A DNA stretch of 64,000 bases from Bacteroidales bacterium (GTDB taxonomy: Bacteria > Bacteroidota > Bacteroidia > Bacteroidales > VadinHA17). This document shows positions 6,145-17,315 of this stretch, piece by piece. The DNA lies in assembly GCA_021738535.1 (NCBI GenBank), contig JAIPBU010000007.1, positions 1 through 64,000 on the forward strand. The letters are read 5' to 3'. Position 1 is the stretch's first letter; each line of letters opens with the position of its first letter. The translations under genes and the position numbers were made by a program. Below the pieces are notes generated by a model, which had not been told where the DNA came from, ran no database searches, and worked only from the letters and a program-made list of their open reading frames with translations.

Positions 6145-6816
6145 ATGAAAGACCTTGATATTATTAGAATTAGTTTCCGAAACAAGATAAAACCAGGGCA
6201 ACTGAGTGCGTTCAGATCAGCCATCGCTCAAACAGCCGGATTTGAAAAAGTACTGTTTCATAATCATCTCGGGGATAATTACAGGCAGGAATATCCCCTG
6301 ATACAGTATAAATTCATAGCCGGTTATCCCAACATAATTGCTCTTGGTAAAGGTATTGAGGAAATGCAATATTTTTTCTTAAAAAAAGAAAGGAATATTA
6401 CACTGGATGGAAAGACTTACCCTCTCAAGGTAATGAAAACTGCACTCAATAGGGTAAATGTAAGGATTGAAAAAGACACAGCATGGGAATATACACTTCA
6501 TCACTGGCTACCTTTTAACCAGGATAACTACAGGAAGCATCAATCATTAAAAAGTCTTGCTGACAAAATTGAAAACCTTCAAAAAATACTTACCGGCAAT
6601 ATTCTTACCTTTCTCGAGGCTGTAAAGGTAGATAAAGATATAAGACTCACCGTATATATAACCGAGATTACCAATCGACAAGTGGTTAAGGTTAATAATG
6701 TTTTAATGGAAAGCTACAACATTAATTTTGAGGCCAATACATTTTTACCTAATTATGTTGGCATCGGGAAAAGCGCAAGCCAGGGACATGGTATTTTGAG
6801 AATGAAGAATAAATAA
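6145..6816 (+). CDS. cas6: Cas6-family CRISPR RNA endoribonuclease
   Basis: 223 residues. The C-terminal glycine-rich loop (GIGKSASQGHGILRM, ending six residues before the stop) and the double-ferredoxin length are typical of Cas6-type RAMP proteins, which cut the CRISPR transcript within each repeat to release crRNAs with an 8-nucleotide 5' handle. Here that handle would be ATTAAGAC. It is the first gene of a tightly packed plus-strand operon; cas10 begins 7 bases downstream. An upstream ATG runs straight into a TAA, so ATG 6145 is the start. A candidate catalytic His lies in LHHWLPFN. Confidence in the family is good, less so in the catalytic residue. Confidence 0.8.
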   Translation: MKDLDIIRISFRNKIKPGQLSAFRSAIAQTAGFEKVLFHNHLGDNYRQEYPLIQYKFIAGYPNIIALGKGIEEMQYFFLKKERNITLDGKTYPLKVMKTALNRVNVRIEKDTAWEYTLHHWLPFNQDNYRKHQSLKSLADKIENLQKILTGNILTFLEAVKVDKDIRLTVYITEITNRQVVKVNNVLMESYNINFEANTFLPNYVGIGKSASQGHGILRMKNK

Positions 6817-6823
6817 GACCAAT

Positions 6824-8326
6824 ATGAACTATAAAGAACACTCTGACAATCTAATAAATATTCTCCAGAATAATTTCAGCAAAAATGATTTTACTGGTAA
6901 AATCAGAACAAAAATTCCAGCGAACAGATACCTGGTCAAAGGTGATCTCTCCGGCATACAGGATTTTATTTTCTCAATCCCATCAAAAGGTGCGGCAAGG
7001 AAGCTAAAAGCACGCTCACAGTTTATAACCAATAAAACCCTTTCGCTGGCAAAAAGGTTAAAAATAATGTATCCTAATCATATTGAATTGTATATTGGTG
7101 GTGGTAACTTCTATATTTTTGCAGAAATCCAAGACATAACAGACCTTGAATTATTTGTAAATGATTTAAACCACGATAATTCGGAACCATATTTAATAAT
7201 TTCATGGATTGAAGTTACAGATGACGATCTTGTTAATTTTGAAAAAACCAGGGAAACGCTTGAAGCTATATGCGGGAAGGCAAAATTTCAGAAATTTAAG
7301 AATAATCCAAATAGATTTCTTCCTTATGAGGAAACCAAATCAGCAAACCCTACAGGAAATGAGAACTTAAAAGGTCTGCCTTTATGGAATGCCAATCTTA
7401 TTGAACTGTTCTCGACGAACTCGCAACAAAGTTCAGCCCTAAATGAGGGTGAGATAATTCAATTCGAGCATTTAGCTGCTTTGGCCGGCATCAGAACAGG
7501 AACTACAAAGCTGGGTGTATTAAAACTTGATGTAGATGACCTGGGAATACTCTTTGGGTCTTTGCCTAACCTGGATGCAAGCAAGGCTGTATCTCATGCC
7601 CTGGAATATTTCTTTGATCAGTATCTCATAGAACTACTCGCAAGATCATATAATAGTAAAGAAGGAACTGGCTTGAGAACCTATTACAGGGATAATCTTT
7701 ACATAGTGTTTTCAGGAGGAGATGATGCTTTTATAGTCGGAGCCTGGGATGCTATAACTGATTTCAGCTTACTTATTGCCGAAGAGTTTAAAAAATACAC
7801 AGGCTTCGACAACATGGCAAATGAGGACCATAAACTAACATTTTCCGCATCCCTCATGGTTGTTGATCATCACTTTCCAGTTAAAATGTTTTCACACGAG
7901 GCTGAAGAAATGCTACACAAGGCCAAATATTATGTACCCGGTGAAAAAGGCAGGATAAATTTTATGGGTAATATATTCACCTGGGAACAATTCATTAACA
8001 TAAAGGAATTAACCGGTACTTTCTGTGAGTTAATAGTTAACAGGAATGAATCAAGGTCCTTTCTTGCCAAGCTTCAACAACTTTCACTAGACTATGAAGA
8101 GGACAGCAGGAAATCAGCAGAAATGGACTCGATACCAAAAGTTTGGAGGCTGAATTATGTCTTCAGAGATATAAAAAAGACCAACAAAGATTTTATAATA
8201 CAAAAAATTATCAGGCCCTACGAAATGGAAATGTTGAAATTCAACCTTGAAAAAACCAATGTACAGGCAAATATTTATTATGCGGCAACCAGGTGGACTG
8301 AATTATTGACAAGAAACTCTAAATAA
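6824..8326 (+). CDS. cas10: Cas10/Csm1, GGDD cyclase form without HD domain
   Basis: 500 residues. Residues 39-50 (KGDLSGIQDFIF) are the hallmark start of the first Palm domain, and SGGDDAFIVG holds the intact GGDD cyclase motif at residues 298-301. In type III systems the second Palm makes cyclic oligoadenylates when the complex binds target RNA. Typical Csm1 is 750-850 residues with an N-terminal HD nuclease. Here only about 38 residues precede the Palm, so the HD DNase is missing. A four-helix D4-like C-terminus follows. The protein should therefore signal through cyclic oligoadenylate rather than cut DNA, consistent with the CARF-HEPN protein downstream. It sits between cas6 and csm2 with gaps of 7 and 8 bases. 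Confidence 0.95.
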   Translation: MNYKEHSDNLINILQNNFSKNDFTGKIRTKIPANRYLVKGDLSGIQDFIFSIPSKGAARKLKARSQFITNKTLSLAKRLKIMYPNHIELYIGGGNFYIFAEIQDITDLELFVNDLNHDNSEPYLIISWIEVTDDDLVNFEKTRETLEAICGKAKFQKFKNNPNRFLPYEETKSANPTGNENLKGLPLWNANLIELFSTNSQQSSALNEGEIIQFEHLAALAGIRTGTTKLGVLKLDVDDLGILFGSLPNLDASKAVSHALEYFFDQYLIELLARSYNSKEGTGLRTYYRDNLYIVFSGGDDAFIVGAWDAITDFSLLIAEEFKKYTGFDNMANEDHKLTFSASLMVVDHHFPVKMFSHEAEEMLHKAKYYVPGEKGRINFMGNIFTWEQFINIKELTGTFCELIVNRNESRSFLAKLQQLSLDYEEDSRKSAEMDSIPKVWRLNYVFRDIKKTNKDFIIQKIIRPYEMEMLKFNLEKTNVQANIYYAATRWTELLTRNSK

Positions 8327-8334
8327 CCAAAACC

Positions 8335-8742
8335 ATGAATCACACAAGAAGGGATTACAGGCAAGAACAGCATCACAAACCTTTTCCAAAGACAGGGGAG
8401 AAACTCCTGGAATTTGCCAATAAGGGCAGTGACACAGGATTAATAATCGATGAAATTAAAGAATTTGTAAGGCATAATGGGAAAAGCATATCTTCATCAC
8501 AATTAAGAAATATCTATGGGAAAGTTGTCTCCATAGATGACGTTGATATCACCGGCATCCAACTTCTCAGACCCAAACTAGCATATGTAGCTGCCAGACA
8601 AGATAAACAAGATGCAAGAATTTTTGTCGAATACATTGATGAACTTATATCAAAAATAAACAATGAAAGCCATGTAAAAAGTTTCAAAATATTCATGGAA
8701 GCTATTGTGGCATACCATAAGTTTTACGCAAAATCAAAATAA
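8335..8742 (+). CDS. csm2: Csm2, small subunit (Cas11) of the type III-A complex
   Basis: 135 residues, helical. The motif LLRPKLAYVAARQ followed by AYHKFYAK at the C-terminus is characteristic of Csm2, which lines the inner face of the Csm filament and helps hold the target RNA. The gene lies between cas10 and csm3 with gaps of 8 and 6 bases, the standard csm order. ATG 8335 is the only sensible start. Confidence 0.92.
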   Translation: MNHTRRDYRQEQHHKPFPKTGEKLLEFANKGSDTGLIIDEIKEFVRHNGKSISSSQLRNIYGKVVSIDDVDITGIQLLRPKLAYVAARQDKQDARIFVEYIDELISKINNESHVKSFKIFMEAIVAYHKFYAKSK

Positions 8743-8748
8743 TCTGAT

Positions 8749-9465
8749 ATGGAAAAGTTAACAGGTAAAGTAATTTTATCGGGAAAAATAACAACCCTAA
8801 CCGGTTTACACATTGGCGGATCCTCATCTGCACTTGATATCGGCGGAATTGACTTAAATGTGATAAAAACAGCTGCTGGTTTACCTTTTATCCCGGGCAG
8901 CTCAATAAAAGGTAAGTTAAGAAACCTTCTCGCCCGTAAAGCAGGATCCCCGAAAGTTGAAGACGATCCAGTTGCAATTTCCAGGATCTTCGGTACATCC
9001 GGGGATAAAAGTGTAACAGGCCCTAATACAAGGTTATCTGTCAGGGATGCAATGCTTGATAAAAAAGCCTTCGCAGAGGAGTTTGGCAATTCCGAACTGG
9101 AATACAGGTACACAGAGGGGAAATGGGAAAACACGATCGACAGGACTAAGGGCTCAGCAAAGAACCCCCGCCAGCTGGAACGAGTGCCTGCGGGCGCAGA
9201 ATTCTGTTTCGAAATGGTTTATGACATTTACGAAGATGGTAAGAGGGATGAAGATTTAAAATCCATTATTGAATCCATGCGCTTACTCGAAGATGATTAC
9301 CTTGGGGGAAGCGGATCGAGGGGATATGGAAAAATTAAATTCTCTGAAGTAAAACTTGAATTGAGGGACATCAAAGAATATTACGAGAAGGAAGAGACAG
9401 TTAATGATTTTAACTCGCTTGATTCCTTTGCCAAAGAATTTAACCAAGGACAAAATAATGGATAA
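8749..9465 (+). CDS. csm3: Csm3, Cas7-type backbone subunit and target-RNA nuclease
   Basis: 238 residues. Visible features are TGLHIGGSSSALDIGGID, with the D35 that aligns to the catalytic Asp (D33 of Streptococcus Csm3), the RAMP block FIPGSSIKGKLR, NTIDR, and the glycine-rich DYLGGSGSRGYGKI. Several copies polymerise on the crRNA and cut bound target RNA at 6-base intervals. The active-site Asp is present, so target RNA cleavage should be active. The stop overlaps the csm4 start by 8 bases, suggesting translational coupling. Confidence 0.97.
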   Translation: MEKLTGKVILSGKITTLTGLHIGGSSSALDIGGIDLNVIKTAAGLPFIPGSSIKGKLRNLLARKAGSPKVEDDPVAISRIFGTSGDKSVTGPNTRLSVRDAMLDKKAFAEEFGNSELEYRYTEGKWENTIDRTKGSAKNPRQLERVPAGAEFCFEMVYDIYEDGKRDEDLKSIIESMRLLEDDYLGGSGSRGYGKIKFSEVKLELRDIKEYYEKEETVNDFNSLDSFAKEFNQGQNNG

Positions 9466-10468
9466 AGTATTCTTATTTACCCGCCCGGGCCAGCAATACC
9501 ACTTTGGTGGCTTTAACAATTTTGAAAGCAATGTGCTTGAAGAGTGTGATACACATTTACATTCTGACCTTCTATTCTCAGCCCTGGTGGATACTTGCTC
9601 AAGCGTCTACCCTAATCTCACGGAAGATCTTGTTTCTGAATTTGAAAATGGTAGAATAAAATTATCATCGGCATTCTGGTTTATTGAAAAAGACAATATA
9701 AAAATCTGCTTTTACCCGAAACCCGTCTCATGTGAACTTTTCAGGACAGACGATCATAAGAAATTTAAAAAAGTGAAATATGTTTCCGAAGGGATAATTA
9801 AACAGGGCATCACACCTGATCTATGGAATGTAGAATGCAGCCTGTCTGGAACATTCCTTTGCACTAAAAGCGAGTTAAAAAAGCTGGGGTTTGAAGATAT
9901 GCCTGGGCTCTACAAAACAATCATCCTGCCTAAAGTCAAGGTTCACACAGATTCCGTTGAAGACAGGTTGTTCCAACAAACAAATATACAGGTAAATGAT
10001 CTGGATGTACCGGGGACATCAACCGGTTTTTGGTTTTTCCTTGACACACCATCCAATGATTCTCCTATGTACAAAATCATCACCCCCTTGCTGAGAATAC
10101 TTGCTGATTCGGGATTGGGAGGCCAGAGGTCAACCGGCACTGGAAAAATACATGCAATTACTAAAAGTGATATTGATGATATAGAAATAAATACTGGGGA
10201 ACCGGTCATGACATTAGGGCTGCTATCTCCTGGTCAGAATGATACAGATGACATGCTGTATTACACTCTTCTTACAAGAGGTGGAAAATACTCCGGTACA
10301 AAACAAAGACTAATGCTGTTAAATATGGCGGCTGAAGGATCTATACTCAAGCGGGTTCTGGAGGGTAATATTGTAAACCTCCAGAAAAGCAAGATGAAAA
10401 CATCACTCAGGTATGGTAATCCTCTACAGGTGAATATTAATAAAAAGTTTCTTCCATCATGGAGTTAA
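9458..10468 (+). CDS. csm4: Csm4, Cas5-type subunit
   Basis: 336 residues from ATG 9458 (MDKVFLFTRPGQQYHFGG). An in-frame ATG at 9404 lies deep inside csm3 and is not needed. The N-terminal RAMP fold, the motif DSGLGGQRSTGTGKI and the overall length fit Csm4, which binds the 5' handle of the crRNA and contacts Cas10. It overlaps csm3 by 8 bases and csm5 by 10. Confidence 0.92.
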   Translation: MDKVFLFTRPGQQYHFGGFNNFESNVLEECDTHLHSDLLFSALVDTCSSVYPNLTEDLVSEFENGRIKLSSAFWFIEKDNIKICFYPKPVSCELFRTDDHKKFKKVKYVSEGIIKQGITPDLWNVECSLSGTFLCTKSELKKLGFEDMPGLYKTIILPKVKVHTDSVEDRLFQQTNIQVNDLDVPGTSTGFWFFLDTPSNDSPMYKIITPLLRILADSGLGGQRSTGTGKIHAITKSDIDDIEINTGEPVMTLGLLSPGQNDTDDMLYYTLLTRGGKYSGTKQRLMLLNMAAEGSILKRVLEGNIVNLQKSKMKTSLRYGNPLQVNINKKFLPSWS

Positions 10469-11610
10469 AAAATTTCAAATTCAAAATATCCACATTTTCA
10501 CCCGTATGCATTTCGGATACACAGGATAAAGTCCTCTCTCCCTATACCGATTTCGTGATTAAACAAGGTAATGTACATTATATTGACCATCTCGAGATGG
10601 ATAGCTACTTCGCCCATAACCCCAGCCTGGTGAATATTTACTCTAACAAGATCAAAGCGCTGTACAAGGGTGGAAGGAGCACATTTTCGCTGGCCGGTTT
10701 TATTGAAAACGAATTGGGTTCAAACGTGGAAGACATTACAAGGCTCAGCCTTGAATATAAGGGGCAGAACTTTGACAGGAAAAACAATATAACCTCTGTA
10801 ATTCGAAACGCAGGCAAACCATATATCCCGGGCAGTTCTGTAAAAGGAGCCCTTAAAGGTGCTTTCTTGTATTATTGGCTTAATAAAACAGCAAATGGCA
10901 GTGAAGTATTAGGTAAAATATACAATGCCGTAAAATACATCAACGACAGCCGGAATCTTGTAAAGGCCATTTCCGACTTAATTAACCCCTTTTTGGGTTC
11001 AGTTAATAATTCAACGGCCAATGAATTCAATAATCTGAGAGCAACAGACAGTAGTCTTTTTCATGAAACCGACCTTGCAGTCTATCACGCAAAACGGCTG
11101 CACATGAAAAAAGGCATTACACAAATACCAGCTGATCTTGAGGCTATTAATCCAGGCAAGGATTGCGCTATCACAATATCGATTAACGGCAAGTTTAGCG
11201 GTGAACGGGAGTGGTTAAACCAGGTACGGCCACAAGAGCTAAGCCAAATAGTGAACCTTTTTTCGCGTCAGAACCTCGAACATGATTGGGAGGATCTTGA
11301 TGACCATGTCGATGATATTGAAGATGGCAACCTGTACGATAATATTTTCGACTTCTACGAAAATTCAGCTGCTGAGATGGATAAACCTGGCAATGATGCT
11401 ATTTATTTACGGCTTGGAAGTGGAAAAGGATTCCTGCATCAGACAATAGGACTCGCCTTAAAGAATAAAGACAATGGTATCTACAGTAAATATTTTAAAC
11501 ATCTTAGACTTGGAAAAGGAAATCAAAAACAGTTCCCTGTCACCCGGTTATTCGCCATACCCCAGGGAACCCCATTCGGTTGGGTAAAAATAATTATGAA
11601 AAATGAGTAA
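10459..11610 (+). CDS. csm5: Csm5, Cas7-like terminal subunit
   Basis: 383 residues. The RAMP motif PYIPGSSVKGALKGAFLYYW and the C-terminal glycine-rich RLGSGKGFLHQTIGLAL, followed by FPVTRLFAIPQG, are those of Csm5. This subunit caps the filament at the 3' end of the crRNA and recruits trimming nucleases. It overlaps csm4 by 10 bases and the Csx1-like gene by 8, so the whole csm block is one transcription unit. Confidence 0.92.
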   Translation: MELKNFKFKISTFSPVCISDTQDKVLSPYTDFVIKQGNVHYIDHLEMDSYFAHNPSLVNIYSNKIKALYKGGRSTFSLAGFIENELGSNVEDITRLSLEYKGQNFDRKNNITSVIRNAGKPYIPGSSVKGALKGAFLYYWLNKTANGSEVLGKIYNAVKYINDSRNLVKAISDLINPFLGSVNNSTANEFNNLRATDSSLFHETDLAVYHAKRLHMKKGITQIPADLEAINPGKDCAITISINGKFSGEREWLNQVRPQELSQIVNLFSRQNLEHDWEDLDDHVDDIEDGNLYDNIFDFYENSAAEMDKPGNDAIYLRLGSGKGFLHQTIGLALKNKDNGIYSKYFKHLRLGKGNQKQFPVTRLFAIPQGTPFGWVKIIMKNE

Positions 11611-12835
11611 TAAAGTATTTATCTCCATACTCGGAACGGGCAATTATAATAAATGTAAATATTTCTTCGATAACCCGGATGTGCATCTTGAAACCAGGTA
11701 TGCACAGCTTGCCACATTACAATTACTGTATAATAACTGGAGCAATGATGACAAAGTACTCATTTTTACTACGCCACAGGCAAAAGAAAAGCATTATGAC
11801 TTACTTGAAGATGAATTCAAACAGCTTAATAAAGAATCGGAATTAATAAGGGTAGACATCGATAAAGGTCTGAACCCGGGGTCACAATGGGATATATTCG
11901 AAAAAATACTTGAGAATATACCTCCTGAAAGTGAACTATATATAGATATCACCCACTCATTCAGGTACCTGCCGATGCTGGTACTGGTACTGGCTAATTA
12001 TGCAAAAGCACTTAAAAATATAGAAATAGGCAAAATAACCTACGGCAACTGGGAAGCCAGGAATGAGAACAACAACACAGCACCAATTACAGATCTTACC
12101 TCCCTATCTTATGTTCAGGACTGGGCTGTAGCTGTTAACGATTTTACTGAATTTGGCAATGTCAAAAAATTACAAGCACTTGCCTCAAAAACATTAAAAC
12201 CACTTCTTTCAAAATCTGCCAACGATGACAAGAGTGCAAACCACCTTGAAAATGCTATAATTAGCCTGGAGCAGCTAACCGAGGAGATCCAGACATGCAG
12301 GTTGCAATCCATATACGAAGGAAGCAAAGCTACCGAAGTAATAATCAGTCTAAACAAGGTAAATAACGTAGATAGTAAGCCTCTCGCTCCACTCATAGGC
12401 ATGATGTCCGAAAAGACACAAGAACTGTCAGAAGAGAATAACCTTGATAATGGTTTTAAAGCAGTGGAATGGTGTATTGATAACGGCATGCTACAACAAG
12501 GCTACACCATCCTGCAAGAGAATATTATAAACTATCTCTGTGTTGAAACCAAGGTAGGCTTAACCAATAGGGAATTTCGTGAAGATTATTCAGCGGCACT
12601 GAATATAATATCAGGAAAAAATAAAACCCCTATTTCGAAAAACATGCAGAACCTGAAAAATGTAGACAGTATTGAGATGCTTGCAAAGGAGTATAGAAAT
12701 ATTGCAAATATAAGGAATGATATTAACCATGCCGGTATGAGAAAAAATGCCTGCGGGGCAAAAAAATTCAAACCCACCCTGCAAAAATCATTAGGAAAAA
12801 TAAAAGACATCATCTATGCTGGTAAACCTGACTAA
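11603..12835 (+). CDS. csx1: CARF-HEPN ribonuclease of the Csx1/TIGR02221 (DxTHG) family
   Basis: 410 residues. The N-terminal CARF domain has the family motif D114-I-T-H-S-F (DxTHG type) in LYIDITHSFRYLPML, which marks the cyclic-oligoadenylate sensor. The C-terminal HEPN domain carries R371-N-D-I-N-H376, the R-x4-H ribonuclease motif. On binding the second messenger made by Cas10, such proteins dimerise and degrade RNA non-specifically, giving dormancy or abortive infection. It is placed directly after csm5 (8-base overlap), where csm6 would sit in a classical III-A locus. The symbol is given for the family; the exact subfamily was not tested. Confidence 0.88.
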   Translation: MSNKVFISILGTGNYNKCKYFFDNPDVHLETRYAQLATLQLLYNNWSNDDKVLIFTTPQAKEKHYDLLEDEFKQLNKESELIRVDIDKGLNPGSQWDIFEKILENIPPESELYIDITHSFRYLPMLVLVLANYAKALKNIEIGKITYGNWEARNENNNTAPITDLTSLSYVQDWAVAVNDFTEFGNVKKLQALASKTLKPLLSKSANDDKSANHLENAIISLEQLTEEIQTCRLQSIYEGSKATEVIISLNKVNNVDSKPLAPLIGMMSEKTQELSEENNLDNGFKAVEWCIDNGMLQQGYTILQENIINYLCVETKVGLTNREFREDYSAALNIISGKNKTPISKNMQNLKNVDSIEMLAKEYRNIANIRNDINHAGMRKNACGAKKFKPTLQKSLGKIKDIIYAGKPD

Positions 12836-13184
12836 CCATCCTTCTAATCTTTGGCCAGCAGGGCAAAAAAAAGCTGCAGAAAAATATGGTGGCATAACTG
12901 ACTTACCGTTCCCAAAGATACCTTCTGAATGGGATAAACAAGATATTAAGGTATTAGTTAACAAGTATTCCAGGGAAATTCTGGAATTAAAGCAGGAAAC
13001 CCGTGAGAAGATATTTGTTCACCTGATGGGTGAATCAACTTTTATGTTTGCTCTTGGCCACCTGCTTATTAATAATGGAATAACATGCATCGTTTCAACC
13101 ACGGAAAGAAATACAGACGAGGAACATGAACTTAAACTCAGCAGATTCAGATTCGTAAAATTCAGGGAATTATTTATCCCTTGA
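12816..13184 (+). CDS. small type III accessory protein, Rossmann-like
   Basis: 122 residues. The start overlaps the 3' end of the CARF-HEPN gene by 20 bases, so it belongs to the operon. It begins MLVNLTNHPSNLWPAGQKKA, then DLPFPKIPSEWD. Its second half (VHLMGESTFMFALGHLL, then NGITCIVSTTERN) looks like an alternating beta-alpha Rossmann fold with a conserved-looking MGE and STTER. Proteins of this look and size occur beside type III loci. By position it is a candidate regulator or ring nuclease that breaks the cyclic-oligoadenylate signal, but no catalytic residue can be assigned and the idea is inference. Confidence 0.65.
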   Translation: MLVNLTNHPSNLWPAGQKKAAEKYGGITDLPFPKIPSEWDKQDIKVLVNKYSREILELKQETREKIFVHLMGESTFMFALGHLLINNGITCIVSTTERNTDEEHELKLSRFRFVKFRELFIP

Positions 13185-13237: not shown

Positions 13238-14257
13238 ATGGATCTAATACTTAATACTTTTGGAACTTCCCTGCTGAAGGAGAATGATAATCTAATCATC
13301 ATACATAAAGACGGTAAGCAAAAGATCCATCCTGAAAAAATAAAATCAATCATTATAGGAAGAGGAGCCCAGATTAGCAGCGATGCAACAATATTAGCAA
13401 TAAATCATCAAATAGACATCTTCTTCGTGGATCGGGCTGGTGATCCCGTAGGAAGAGTATGGAGTGTTAAATATGGGTCAGTTACCACCATAAGAAGGCA
13501 GCAGCTTGATTTCACCTTTTCAAATAAAGCTACTGAATGGATAAAAAAGATTATTGCAGAAAAAATAGGCAATCAAATTGCAATAATCCTGTCATTTGCA
13601 CCTGGAGATGAATATACAATAAGCCGCACAGAAACGGCCATCAGAAAACTTAACGATTACAAAACTAAGGTTGAAAACATAACTGTTGACATCATAAGTG
13701 AAATATCACGCACTTTAAGAGGGTGGGAAGGTGCTTCAGGGAGGGTCTATTTTGAAACACTTAACCTTTTTCTCCCGGAACAGTTTAAAAGCAAAGGACG
13801 TTCGCAACACCCGGCAACAGATCCTATAAATTGTTTACTGAATTACGGGTATGGAATATTATATGGCAAAATCGAAAGCGCCTTGGTTAAAGCAGGAGTG
13901 GATCCATACATAGGAATATTTCACCGCGAGGATTATAACAGGCCTGTTCTTGTTTTTGATATAATTGAAAAATTTAGGGTATGGGTAGATTATGTAGTCT
14001 TAACACTAATAATACAGGAGGCGATTGACGAAGAATGCTACAGTGTAAAAGAAGATGGTTCTTATTGGCTTGAAGGACTGGGTAAACGCATCCTGATTCA
14101 GTCACTAAACGATTACATGGAGGAAATAATAACACTTAATGGCCTGGAAAGATCAAGGTTGAATCACATTCAAATGTTTGCCCACAGTGTCGCAAAAATG
14201 TTTATGAACTTTAAAAATGCCAGTGACAATGATAATGGCAGGAAAAAAAATAAATGA
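13238..14257 (+). CDS. cas1: Cas1 integrase
   Basis: 339 residues with the three metal-binding residues in their usual contexts: E173 (RVYFETLN), H229 (GIFHRED) and D241 (VFDIIEKFR). Cas1 with Cas2 inserts new spacers at the leader end of the array. It is a plain Cas1: the first residues are already the beta-strand domain, and there is no fused reverse transcriptase. A 53-base gap separates it from the interference operon, so it may have its own promoter. Its 3' end overlaps the primase-polymerase gene by up to 41 bases. Confidence 0.97.
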   Translation: MDLILNTFGTSLLKENDNLIIIHKDGKQKIHPEKIKSIIIGRGAQISSDATILAINHQIDIFFVDRAGDPVGRVWSVKYGSVTTIRRQQLDFTFSNKATEWIKKIIAEKIGNQIAIILSFAPGDEYTISRTETAIRKLNDYKTKVENITVDIISEISRTLRGWEGASGRVYFETLNLFLPEQFKSKGRSQHPATDPINCLLNYGYGILYGKIESALVKAGVDPYIGIFHREDYNRPVLVFDIIEKFRVWVDYVVLTLIIQEAIDEECYSVKEDGSYWLEGLGKRILIQSLNDYMEEIITLNGLERSRLNHIQMFAHSVAKMFMNFKNASDNDNGRKKNK

Positions 14258-15251
14258 TCCATTTGATGCTTTAAAAAAAATAAGCATTGAATATTTTTAT
14301 AAATCTGTAAAAGAGCCCAAGTCTGAGCTTGCAAACCGCATTAATAGTATCAGGAAAGTAAAACAACTAAACCCGGAAAAATTTTCACAACTTAAAAAGA
14401 CCCTGCCTTATATAGTCTGTGGCATTTTTTCTCCTCCTTTTAGAAAAACGGAAAATTTTTCAAGAATAGGATACTTCATCCTTGACATTGATCACCTGTC
14501 AAGCAAATCCATAAACGTAAATAATTTAAAAAGTAAGCTTTCTGAAGACGAAAGAGTACATTGTATATTTATTTCGCCTGGGCAGGACGGCCTGAAAATA
14601 ATGTTTCAACTTGAAAATCTAATATATGATCCGGTTAAATATAAAGTGTTTTACAGGCAATTTGCGTCAAAATTTGCCTTGCATTACTCTATTGAACAAG
14701 TAGTGGACACGGTTACCTGTGATGTTTCAAGAGCTTGCTTTATTAGTTATGACAGTGAAGCTTTTTACAGGAAAGACCCTGTTACTATTAAAGCAGATGA
14801 ATATATAAGTTTTGAAGATTCAGGTGTACTTAAATCCATACAGGATGAAAACAGAGAGACAGCCAAAACAGTGAAGGCTCATAAAAAGGATTTGAATCAG
14901 CAGAAGGACTTAGATGAAGAAAAAATGCAGGAAATAAAATCATTACTTGGTGTCAGATACCGTCAATCCAGCCCTAAACAGATTTTCGTTCCGGATCAAT
15001 TAGAAAAGATAAAATCAAGTGTTGAAAAAACTTTTGAAGAATATAATATAGTAACCGATGAAATTTCAAATATTAATTTTGGCAAAAAATATAAGGTGCA
15101 CCTGGGCAATAAACATGCCGAAGTAAACCTTTTTTACGGAAAAAAAGGTTATGTAGTGGTCAAGAGCCCCAGGCGCGGTACCAATCCAGAATTGAATGAT
15201 ATTGTATGTAATATTTTAGGCAAAATGTTTTATGGGGCAGAAAGTGAATAA
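14217..15251 (+). CDS. CRISPR-associated primase-polymerase (BT4734/AEP type)
   Basis: 344 residues if ATG 14217 is used; ATGs at 14229 and 14235 are equally possible. The archaeo-eukaryotic primase core is visible: motif I hhhDhD as YFILDIDHL (D90, D92), motif II as ISPGQDGLKIMFQL (about 119-132), and motif III around DVSRACFISYD (169-179). This resembles the BT4734-like primases common in Bacteroidota and the primase-polymerases reported next to cas1 and cas2. Residues 185-250 are charged linker. A C-terminal domain of about 90 residues (KVHLGNKHAEVNLFYGKKGY, then VVKSPRRGTNPEL) is not part of the core and is unknown to me. The gene is wedged between cas1 and cas2 and overlaps both, so it probably makes or fills in DNA during spacer acquisition. 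Confidence 0.8.
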   Translation: MPVTMIMAGKKINDPFDALKKISIEYFYKSVKEPKSELANRINSIRKVKQLNPEKFSQLKKTLPYIVCGIFSPPFRKTENFSRIGYFILDIDHLSSKSINVNNLKSKLSEDERVHCIFISPGQDGLKIMFQLENLIYDPVKYKVFYRQFASKFALHYSIEQVVDTVTCDVSRACFISYDSEAFYRKDPVTIKADEYISFEDSGVLKSIQDENRETAKTVKAHKKDLNQQKDLDEEKMQEIKSLLGVRYRQSSPKQIFVPDQLEKIKSSVEKTFEEYNIVTDEISNINFGKKYKVHLGNKHAEVNLFYGKKGYVVVKSPRRGTNPELNDIVCNILGKMFYGAESE

Positions 15252-15726
15252 AGAAAGTAATACTGATCTTACTTTTGTCAGGAAAATGATGCTTATAAAA
15301 AAGGCTGGTATTAATACATATAAAAGTATTAACCACCCGGTTTGTAAAAGTGAAATCATAGAAGATCTTCCGTCACGGATTCAGCGTGCAATGAAGATTA
15401 CAACCAGCAAGGATTTAAAGCAAAACGAGATGATCTATTTTATAATGTACGACATAGAGAATAATAAAATACGACAAAATATAGCCAAATACCTTGAAAA
15501 GAAAGGTTGTACAAGGGTTCAAAAATCGATTTTTATTGCCAAATCTGAACGAAAAACCTATGATGAAATATCATCGACATTAAAAAAAGTACAGGAGTTA
15601 TATTCAAATAATGATAGCATATTTTTTGTTCCCGTAAGCACGGACCATATCAGGGCAATGAAGATCATTGGTGTAAATGTAGATTTCGATATGGTTTTGG
15701 GCAATAGGAATACATTGTTCTTTTAA
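15232..15726 (+). CDS. cas2: Cas2 with a 66-residue N-terminal extension
   Basis: 164 residues. The Cas2 ferredoxin fold starts at about residue 67 (EMIYFIMYDIENNKIRQNIA), with D74 of MYDIE as the conserved Asp, then RVQKSIFIAK and DSIFFVPVS. Cas2 is normally 85-100 residues. The extra N-terminus (KKAGINTYKSINHP and so on) is basic and unrecognised. ATG 15232 lies inside the primase-polymerase gene (20-base overlap). An internal methionine (MKITTSKD) could be an alternative start giving a nearly ordinary Cas2. It forms the adaptation unit with cas1 and the primase. Confidence 0.9.
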   Translation: MGQKVNKESNTDLTFVRKMMLIKKAGINTYKSINHPVCKSEIIEDLPSRIQRAMKITTSKDLKQNEMIYFIMYDIENNKIRQNIAKYLEKKGCTRVQKSIFIAKSERKTYDEISSTLKKVQELYSNNDSIFFVPVSTDHIRAMKIIGVNVDFDMVLGNRNTLFF

Positions 15727-15747
15727 TAGCGTTCATTGATGTATTTT

Positions 15748-15778
15748 TTGTATATTAACATGGATTATATTAATTTTG
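15748..15778 (+). promoter_or_regulatory. CRISPR leader promoter (TTG - 20 bases - TAATTTTG)
   Basis: TTG at 15748-15750 is followed 20 bases later by TAATTTTG at 15771-15778, matching the Bacteroidota -33/-7 promoter. Transcription would start near 15783, about 95 bases before the first repeat, and read through the array on the plus strand. The AT-rich leader spans 15727-15876. Confidence 0.6.
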
Positions 15779-15876
15779 CAGGCTGTAAAAATGAAAGCTT
15801 CCGGTACTATTTTTATATTTTTTCTTAAACCTGGCAGGGCCAAACAATTAATTAATAGCATATTAAAAAAAATGCT

Positions 15877-17315
15877 CTCAGAGTCAGTCTTCCAGAACAA
15901 GAAGGATTAAGACGTTATTGTAATTTTCGTCTACTCCGACGATCTGAAGGCGCTCAGAGTCAGTCTTCCAGAACAAGAAGGATTAAGACAGCTTTTTAAG
16001 GTCGAATAGACCTCGTCAAGATTTTTTCTCAGAGTCAGTCTTCCAGAACAAGAAGGATTAAGACCCATACCGCCAGCCGTTATGACCCATTTTGAGAACG
16101 CACTCAGAGTCAGTCTTCCAGAACAAGAAGGATTAAGACTCTCATAATTTTTACCGCTATCGTTTTGTTTTTTATGTCTCAGAGTCAGTCTTCCAGAACA
16201 AGAAGGATTAAGACATCCAGGGAACAGATAGTTCTACCTTTTTAGCACTCTCAGAGTCAGTCTTCCAGAACAAGAAGGATTAAGACAAACACTGACAGGT
16301 CAGTTCATCGACCTTATTCTCGCTCAGAGTCAGTCTTCCAGAACAAGAAGGATTAAGACACACAAACGGACGAATCTCCGTCGGAGTACCCCTCCTCAGA
16401 GTCAGTCTTCCAGAACAAGAAGGATTAAGACACTGACGAGTCTCCTTCGTTGTACGCTTCGTCAACGCTCAGAGTCAGTCTTCCAGAACAAGAAGGATTA
16501 AGACGACAACAGATCAGGTTCAAAGCACTGAACTGTCAATTCTCAGAGTCAGTCTTCCAGAACAAGAAGGATTAAGACCCTGAATACGGTTCTCACCGCC
16601 TTTTTGAAATTTAGTTAACTCAGAGTCAGTCTTCCAGAACAAGAAGGATTAAGACACGCCTTTTTGAAATTTAGTTAAGCTCATAAGAATTCCTCAGAGT
16701 CAGTCTTCCAGAACAAGAAGGATTAAGACTTCACCAACTTCATATGCTTTGACATTATTTTCATACTCTCAGAGTCAGTCTTCCAGAACAAGAAGGATTA
16801 AGACATGGTAACGATGAACGATAGCTCTTGAGCCATCTGCTCAGAGTCAGTCTTCCAGAACAAGAAGGATTAAGACCAGGTACTGTTCTCCATATAAATC
16901 ACTCATAGTAATACTCAGAGTCAGTCTTCCAGAACAAGAAGGATTAAGACAATACCTTGCCTGGGTAGAGGTGAAGATATGCAATCTCAGAGTCAGTCTT
17001 CCAGAACAAGAAGGATTAAGACTTTGATAAAATCTTTTGATGTACTCATTTTTTCTTAGCTCAGAGTCAGTCTTCCAGAACAAGAAGGATTAAGACCCCC
17101 GCGAGCAATAGGAAGATTATCTCTTCCTTAGGCTCAGAGTCAGTCTTCCAGAACAAGAAGGATTAAGACACGGCACTGTCACCGTCATTGTACCCTTCGT
17201 CGACTCTCAGAGTCAGTCTTCCAGAACAAGAAGGATTAAGACATTATCAATAAGGAATGAACATGCACCGCAATAGCTCTCAGAGTCAGTCTTCCAGAAC
17301 AAGAAGGATTAAGAT
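15877..17315 (+). CRISPR. CRISPR array, 20 repeats of 37 bases and 19 spacers
   Basis: The repeat is 37 bases (begins CTCAGAGTCAGTC, ends AGGATTAAGAC) and has an internal GTCTT/AAGAC stem. Repeats start at 15877, 15953, 16028, 16103, 16178, 16250, 16323, 16395, 16468, 16542, 16619, 16693, 16768, 16840, 16914, 16986, 17060, 17133, 17206 and 17279. Spacers are 35-40 bases. Repeats are identical apart from the last base of the last copy (17315, C to T), so the trailer is on the right and the leader lies next to cas2. Plus-strand transcription gives crRNAs with the handle ATTAAGAC. Spacers 10 and 11 share 22 bases; spacers 7, 8 and 18 encode related peptides on the opposite strand. I saw no spacer matching elsewhere in this window. 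Confidence 0.99.

What the first reader, a model, noticed from the sequence alone, without database searches (positions are those of the whole stretch)
16360..17205. Spacers 7, 8 and 18 (and probably 1) target the same repeated protein motif
Reverse complements translate to EGYSDGDSSVC (7), VDEAYNEGDSS (8), VDEGYNDGDSA (18) and RLQIVGVDENYNN (1); spacer 2 gives LDEVYSTLKS. Spacers 8 and 18 agree at 25 of 36 bases yet lie ten spacers apart. The array has repeatedly sampled paralogues or tandem repeats of one gene, perhaps a phage repeat protein.
Basis: partly seen in the sequence, partly recalled or inferred. Interest (0 to 1): 0.75.

Follow-up and report, generated by a model that had tools for sequence, protein, structure and literature searches.

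The report
CRISPR array repeatedly hits one site
Four of the 19 spacers in this bacterial CRISPR array target the same short stretch of one unidentified gene in different, diverged versions; this is probably a record of repeated infection by related viruses or RNA elements that are missing from DNA databases.

Summary
Spacers 1, 7, 8 and 18 all fall, in register and on one strand, on one ~60-nt coding site (composite RLQIVGVDE[GAN]Y[NS][DE]GDS[SA]VC). Similarities exceed all 150 shuffles, and many changes are synonymous. Spacer 2 does not belong. Spacers 10 and 11 are a second overlapping pair.

The array (15877-17315) belongs to a type III-A locus with a type-B CRISPR primase-polymerase (CAPP-B). 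CAPP-linked arrays, including one from a cultured Persicobacter, share the habit: staggered homologous spacers number 26 same-strand to 0 opposite (type I/II controls 2:5). Their spacers read as antisense to coding RNA and are richer in hairpins than type I/II spacers. Type III arrays without CAPP are also sense-biased and intermediate in hairpins, so I cannot pin the pattern on CAPP.

The target is unidentified. The motif is absent from the DNA viral contigs, species genomes and known phages searched, and from 88 microvirus and three levivirus genomes. That these arrays record RNA-genome elements without a reverse transcriptase (none found in this genome) is open and unproven.

The parts
15877..17315 (+). 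CRISPR array: 20 repeats of 37 nt (CTCAGAGTCAGTCTTCCAGAACAAGAAGGATTAAGAC; last copy ends AAGAT) and 19 spacers of 35-40 nt
15914..15952 (-). spacer 1; target strand encodes RLQIVGVDENYNN; upstream part of the shared site
   Evidence: 17/22 bases identical to spacer 18
16360..16394 (-). spacer 7; target strand encodes EGYSDGDSSVC
   Evidence: 22/29 with spacer 8, 19/29 with spacer 18
16432..16467 (-). spacer 8; target strand encodes VDEAYNEGDSS
   Evidence: 25/36 with spacer 18
17170..17205 (-). spacer 18; target strand encodes VDEGYNDGDSA
16579..16618 (-). spacer 10; overlaps spacer 11 target by 22/23 bases (LTKFQKGGENRIQ)
16656..16692 (-). spacer 11; target includes a probable gene start (ILMSLTKFQKG)
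15727..15876 (+). probable leader between cas2 and the first repeat
   Evidence: position and the degenerate repeat at the far end; inference
6145..6816 (+). cas6b, crRNA maturation
6824..8326 (+). cas10/csm1, 500 aa, GGDD palm present, no N-terminal HD nuclease domain found
8335..8742 (+). csm2
8749..9465 (+). csm3
9404..10468 (+). csm4
10459..11610 (+). csm5
11603..12835 (+). csx1-type CARF-HEPN ribonuclease
13238..14257 (+). cas1
14217..15251 (+). CRISPR-associated primase-polymerase type B (CAPP-B), DxD motif ILDIDHL
   Evidence: NF040562 at 363 bits, cut-off 200
15232..15726 (+). cas2, Cas2 domain from residue 67 onward

Best explanation
Spacers 1, 7, 8 and 18 are crRNA-guide segments against one and the same site of one gene, taken on at least four occasions from diverged lineages of one virus (or other mobile element) family. 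They are complementary to the sense RNA, so the III-A complex (Cas10-Csm) can bind that RNA, make cyclic oligoadenylate through the Cas10 GGDD palm and switch on the CARF-HEPN ribonuclease. Shown: same site, same strand, diverged variants, protein-level conservation, a III-A operon with CAPP-B, and the same sampling habit in other CAPP-linked arrays. Inferred: that the variants are lineages rather than repeats in one genome, that the element is small and seen often, that spacer 1 is newest, and the effector chain, which rests on the known biology of type III systems.
For: Array and motif. Operon. Shared habit: 26 staggered (offset over 3 nt) homologous pairs on the same strand and 0 opposite in CAPP-linked arrays of the order and class, against 2:5 in type I/II/V controls (Fisher P 9e-5; the pairs are not all independent). 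Over 18 homologous pairs the best frame has 45 synonymous and 29 nonsynonymous codon changes, the other two frames together 19 and 137 (the best frame was chosen per pair, which leans towards this result). Codon-model orientation: 76% of 541 CAPP-array spacers are coding-like on the target strand, 73% for known antisense 36-mers, 52% for type I and 51% for II/V. Array found afterwards, in a cultured Persicobacter: 5 same-strand pairs, 0 opposite.
Against: No protospacer was found, so the gene, the virus and its coding context are unknown. A motif repeated inside one gene would also give in-register variants. The window itself contributes only 19 spacers; much of the pattern comes from one array of 132 spacers (L020).
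Confidence: 0.72

Rival explanations
1. The four spacers come from tandem repeats or paralogues within a single viral genome.
For: The motif is short and acidic and Gly/Asp-rich, as some repeat proteins are; spacers 7, 8 and 18 agree in register.
Against: Spacer 1 extends the site upstream without repeating it. Other arrays have site-recurrent spacers with non-repetitive peptides. No DNA virus or genome searched carries the motif.
Confidence: 0.18
2. The targets are RNA-genome elements (RNA phages or Obelisk-like replicons), so RNA sequence was copied into the array by the CAPP-B/Cas1/Cas2 module without a reverse transcriptase.
For: Sense-only sampling. Hairpin-rich spacers: mean fold z -0.53 for CAPP arrays, -0.10 for type I and -0.10 for II/V; random 36-mers gave -0.41 to -0.58 in three ssRNA phages and -0.17 to -0.21 in DNA phages. 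Motif absent from DNA collections. No RVT_1 found in this genome or in 8 of 12 CAPP hosts. One spacer of G055 encodes DPTKRCGDDIIA, like an RdRp motif C.
Against: Only one GDD and no other levivirus polymerase motif in about 540 spacers. No similarity to three levivirus proteomes above the opposite-strand background. One spacer (L029 number 58) clearly encodes a microvirus capsid motif, a DNA virus. Type III arrays without CAPP are also sense-biased and intermediate in hairpins (-0.32; difference from CAPP not significant, P 0.15). CAPPs prefer DNA templates in vitro (PMC8211822). The window motif is GYxDGD-like, not the Oblin-1 GYxDxG (PMC13096302).
Confidence: 0.3
3. Ordinary DNA-phage targets; the strand bias comes from selection for RNA-targeting guides, as in Thermus type III-A, and the missing matches only reflect poor sampling of this host's phages.
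For: Selection explains the strand bias in Thermus (PMC7515739); [quoted passage not shown] one microvirus capsid match.
Against: Does not by itself explain the hairpin enrichment.
Confidence: 0.5
4. The motif is the nuclease active site of a tailed-phage large terminase (my own early idea).
For: Resemblance recalled from memory only.
Against: Pattern VGVDxxYxxGDS in the viral contigs gave one off-frame chance hit; other motif patterns gave none in frame apart from one cysteine-synthase-like ORF.
Confidence: 0.04

Closest known systems
CRISPR-associated primase-polymerase type B loci (DbCAPP; Zabrady et al. 2021, PMC8211822; NCBIfam NF040562)
   Same: CAPP-B between cas1 and cas2 of a type III operon in Bacteroidota
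   Different: The passages of that paper I read did not analyse spacer repertoires; here the array shows site-recurrent, sense-only, diverged sampling
RT-Cas1 type III systems (Silas et al. 2017, PMC5513706)
   Same: Type III, spacer repertoire with almost no database matches, possible RNA source
   Different: No reverse transcriptase in this locus and none found in this genome
Thermus thermophilus type III-A adaptation (PMC7515739)
   Same: Conventional Cas1/Cas2, strong bias to transcript-targeting spacers and to a narrow region
   Different: There the region is the early phage region under selection; here a ~60-nt site recurs in diverged variants and the source is unknown
Type III coding-strand bias survey (Vink et al. 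2021, PMC8482600)
   Same: Coding-strand preference of type III spacers, many unknown targets
   Different: Reported average is 65%; CAPP-linked arrays here look close to complete, judged by codon usage rather than by mapped protospacers

Membership tests
Type III-A CRISPR-Cas | Cas10/Csm1 with Csm2, Csm3, Csm4, Csm5 | tested here: met
Type III-A CRISPR-Cas | Cas10 GGDD cyclase motif | tested here: met
   FSGGDDAFIV in the translation
Type III-A CRISPR-Cas | Cas10 N-terminal HD nuclease domain (usual, not universal) | tested here: not met
   no HD hit and no HD motif at the N terminus
CAPP type B locus | primase-polymerase of NF040562 next to cas1 and cas2 | tested here: met
   363 bits against a cut-off of 200; gene order
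CAPP type B locus | DNA priming and polymerase activity | not testable with these tools
   catalytic DxD present in sequence
RT-Cas1 type III system | reverse transcriptase fused or next to cas1 | tested here: not met
   no RVT_1 in the genome (94.7% complete)
Targets in Microviridae | window motif encoded by a microvirus | tested here: not met
   88 microvirus genomes
Targets in Leviviricetes | polymerase motifs and protein similarity among spacers | tested here: not met
   only three genomes compared in full
Obelisk / Oblin-1 | GYxDxG motif | tested here: not met
   spacers read GYNDGD, GYSDGD, AYNEGD against the motif in PMC13096302; some Oblin clades lack the motif, so this is weak
Tailed-phage terminase | motif in terminase genes of viral contigs | tested here: not met

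The most novel reading that the evidence does not exclude
Arrays of type III CRISPR loci with a CAPP-B primase-polymerase are archives of single-stranded, structured RNA elements that infect Bacteroidota and are absent from DNA databases, and their adaptation module copies RNA into DNA without a reverse transcriptase.
Probability: 0.22. Interest if true: 0.88.

Novelty: new member of a known kind. Interest (0 to 1): 0.55.

Why it matters
The locus is of a known kind, but its spacers give a testable handle on two open questions: what type III systems with many unmatched spacers defend against, and what the CRISPR primase-polymerases do. Each recurrent site is a conserved, short, protein-coding probe for hidden viruses or RNA elements; four independent arrays (window, G055, G678, Persicobacter) each supply such probes. 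If metatranscriptomes show these sites in RNA elements with no DNA stage, an RNA-copying route without reverse transcriptase would have to be considered.

Tried and rejected
Terminase reading of the motif: no support. Motif in phages by tblastn: none. First genome-contig scan for the repeat found nothing. Spacer blastn against phages: chance hits only, except L029 spacer 58 in microvirus capsid genes; the query held only the first 39 spacers. Spacers against plasmids: another CAPP array and chance hits. Peptide islands against PHROGs, Pfam and PDB: nothing. Leviviruses as main target: not supported; the tblastn query was an approximate polymerase stretch composed from general knowledge and served only to locate ssRNA phage records. 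Microviruses as main target: not supported. I first labelled L077, L079, L080 and L084 'type III without CAPP'; one search showed they are type I-B, so figures under that label are type I-B. The proper non-CAPP type III set has 121 spacers and weakens any claim that the pattern is CAPP-specific. The array in L226 with a 22-nt unit is a tandem repeat, not a CRISPR array, and was left out.

Full report
What is there. The window carries one CRISPR array at 15877-17315 with 20 repeats of 37 nt and 19 spacers of 35-40 nt. It follows a complete type III operon: cas6b, cas10, csm2, csm3, csm4, csm5, a CARF-HEPN csx1, cas1, a primase-polymerase and cas2. The primase-polymerase meets the NCBIfam equivalog for 'CRISPR-associated primase-polymerase type B' (CAPP-B) with 363 bits. 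Cas10 keeps the GGDD motif but has no HD nuclease domain that I could find. The last repeat is degenerate and the first lies behind cas2, so spacer 1 is probably the newest (inference).

The observation. Spacers 1, 7, 8 and 18 translate, on the strand opposite to the crRNA, to RLQIVGVDENYNN, EGYSDGDSSVC, VDEAYNEGDSS and VDEGYNDGDSA. They tile one site of about 60 nt in register. The six best pairwise similarities within the array each exceed all 150 shuffled sets. In the motif frame the four comparisons give 10 nonsynonymous and 12 synonymous codon changes, in the other two frames together 41 and 8. So a coding sequence under constraint was sampled in diverged forms. Spacer 2 does not belong. 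Spacers 10 and 11 overlap each other by 22/23 bases and span a probable gene start.

Search for the target. Degenerate DNA patterns for the motif gave no credible match: in the viral contigs one hit in a cysteine-synthase-like frame and one off-frame hit, nothing in 84,980 species genomes, and in the window's own genome only the two spacers themselves. tblastn and blastn against 50,697 phage records gave nothing. The probable gene start of spacers 10/11 gave no hit either. Eighty-eight microvirus genomes do not carry the motif; three levivirus genomes do not. The target is therefore unidentified.

The same habit elsewhere. CAPP homologues occur in 21 of 393 genomes of the order and 9 of 395 of the class, these counts including the window's own genome. 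Eighteen arrays next to them were extracted. One, in G055 (a III-D locus by its Cas10 and Cas7), has 133 repeats; about ten of its spacers fall on one 30-residue stretch, TKKDA[SP]..I[FY]LYF[VI].AG[ST][VI]KVRASSYN, in diverged forms. G678 has TYLS[LV]RRNG[KR]LI four times. Across CAPP arrays, homologous spacer pairs that are staggered by more than 3 nt number 26 on the same strand and 0 opposite; in type I/II/V arrays of the same order they number 2 and 5, and their other same-strand pairs sit at offset 0 to 3, as PAM-fixed re-acquisition would give (Fisher P 9e-5, with the caveat that several pairs come from one cluster). A further array found afterwards, on plasmid pPP6 of the cultured Persicobacter psychrovividus with an NCBI-annotated CAPP-B, shows 5 same-strand pairs and none opposite; one pair keeps LTFTGNDRSLKD through seven synonymous changes.

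Strand and structure. By a codon-usage model trained on host genes, 76% of 541 CAPP-array spacers look coding on the target strand; 36-mers that are known to be antisense give 73%, type I 52%, II/V 51%. This means nearly all CAPP spacers are probably antisense to coding RNA; the published type III average from mapped protospacers is 65% (PMC8482600). The spacers also fold better than dinucleotide shuffles: mean z -0.53 (CAPP plus Persicobacter, n=601), against -0.10 for type I (n=830) and -0.10 for II/V (n=526); perfect stems of 7 bp or more are 4.05 times the shuffled number, 0.99 in type I and 1.5 in II/V. Random 36-mers of three ssRNA phages give -0.41 to -0.58, of a microvirus and two tailed phages -0.17 to -0.21. 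A proper set of type III arrays without CAPP (121 spacers) is also sense-biased and has z -0.32, not significantly different from CAPP arrays (P 0.15). So these signatures separate type III from types I and II here; they are not shown to be a property of CAPP.

Interpretation. The best reading is that related, diverged elements of one family have been met again and again, and that guides against the sense strand of one conserved site were kept. Selection can produce the strand bias without any special acquisition route (PMC7515739). The hairpin content and the absence from DNA collections point towards structured, single-stranded targets, possibly RNA elements; but polymerase motifs are scarce (one CGDDII in about 540 spacers), one spacer of G673 plainly encodes a microvirus capsid motif, LNYRCWEKDYFT, and CAPPs prefer DNA templates in vitro (PMC8211822). 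If RNA was the source, no reverse transcriptase explains it here: none was found in this genome or in 8 of 12 CAPP hosts (MAGs, so absence is not proof).

Known and new. The locus is a new member of a known kind. In the limited library searched I found no account of spacer repertoires of CAPP loci. The recurrent-site pattern is the part worth following, because each recurrent site is a ready probe for the unknown targets.

Noticed in passing
window 16579-16618 and 16656-16692: Spacers 10 and 11 overlap by 22 of 23 bases on the same strand and include a probable gene start, MSLTKFQKGGENRIQ; no match in the viral contigs.
   Followed up: yes
window 6824-8326: Cas10 lacks an HD nuclease domain but keeps GGDD; Cas10 of G055 (L052) and G186 (L045) also show no HD motif, whereas that of G678 (L036) has one.
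   Followed up: partly
window 15232-15726: The cas2 frame has 66 residues before the Cas2 domain and overlaps the CAPP gene; real extension or wrong start not decided.
   Followed up: no
window 12816-13184: Unassigned 122-aa frame between csx1 and cas1.
   Followed up: no
L029 7351-7388 (G673 array): Spacer encodes LNYRCWEKDYFT on the target strand, 11/12 residues identical to a microvirus major capsid protein.
   Followed up: yes
L020 3068-3105 (G055 array spacer 44): Target strand encodes DPTKRCGDDIIA, like motif C of an RNA-dependent RNA polymerase; single case.
   Followed up: partly
L020 spacers 50 and 71: Two overlapping spacers (KCEDYENSTSYT, SFEVLCEDYENS) resemble the end of a microvirus replication initiator (SCEDYESS), suggestive only.
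   Followed up: partly
L209 (Persicobacter psychrovividus plasmid pPP6): Cultured strain with a CAPP-B type III locus and 62 spacers on a plasmid; overlapping spacers assemble to MEILKALTTVLKGVEATTLKSVQDSKALLLN; no family match.
   Followed up: partly
G000 contig C19:3904-4575 (L091): The same genome holds a second Cas1 with a 45-spacer array of about 30-nt spacers, type II-like.
   Followed up: no
L068 (G514 C135): A type I-like array of 125 spacers contains several near-duplicate spacers shifted by 1-2 nt (slipped re-acquisitions).
   Followed up: no
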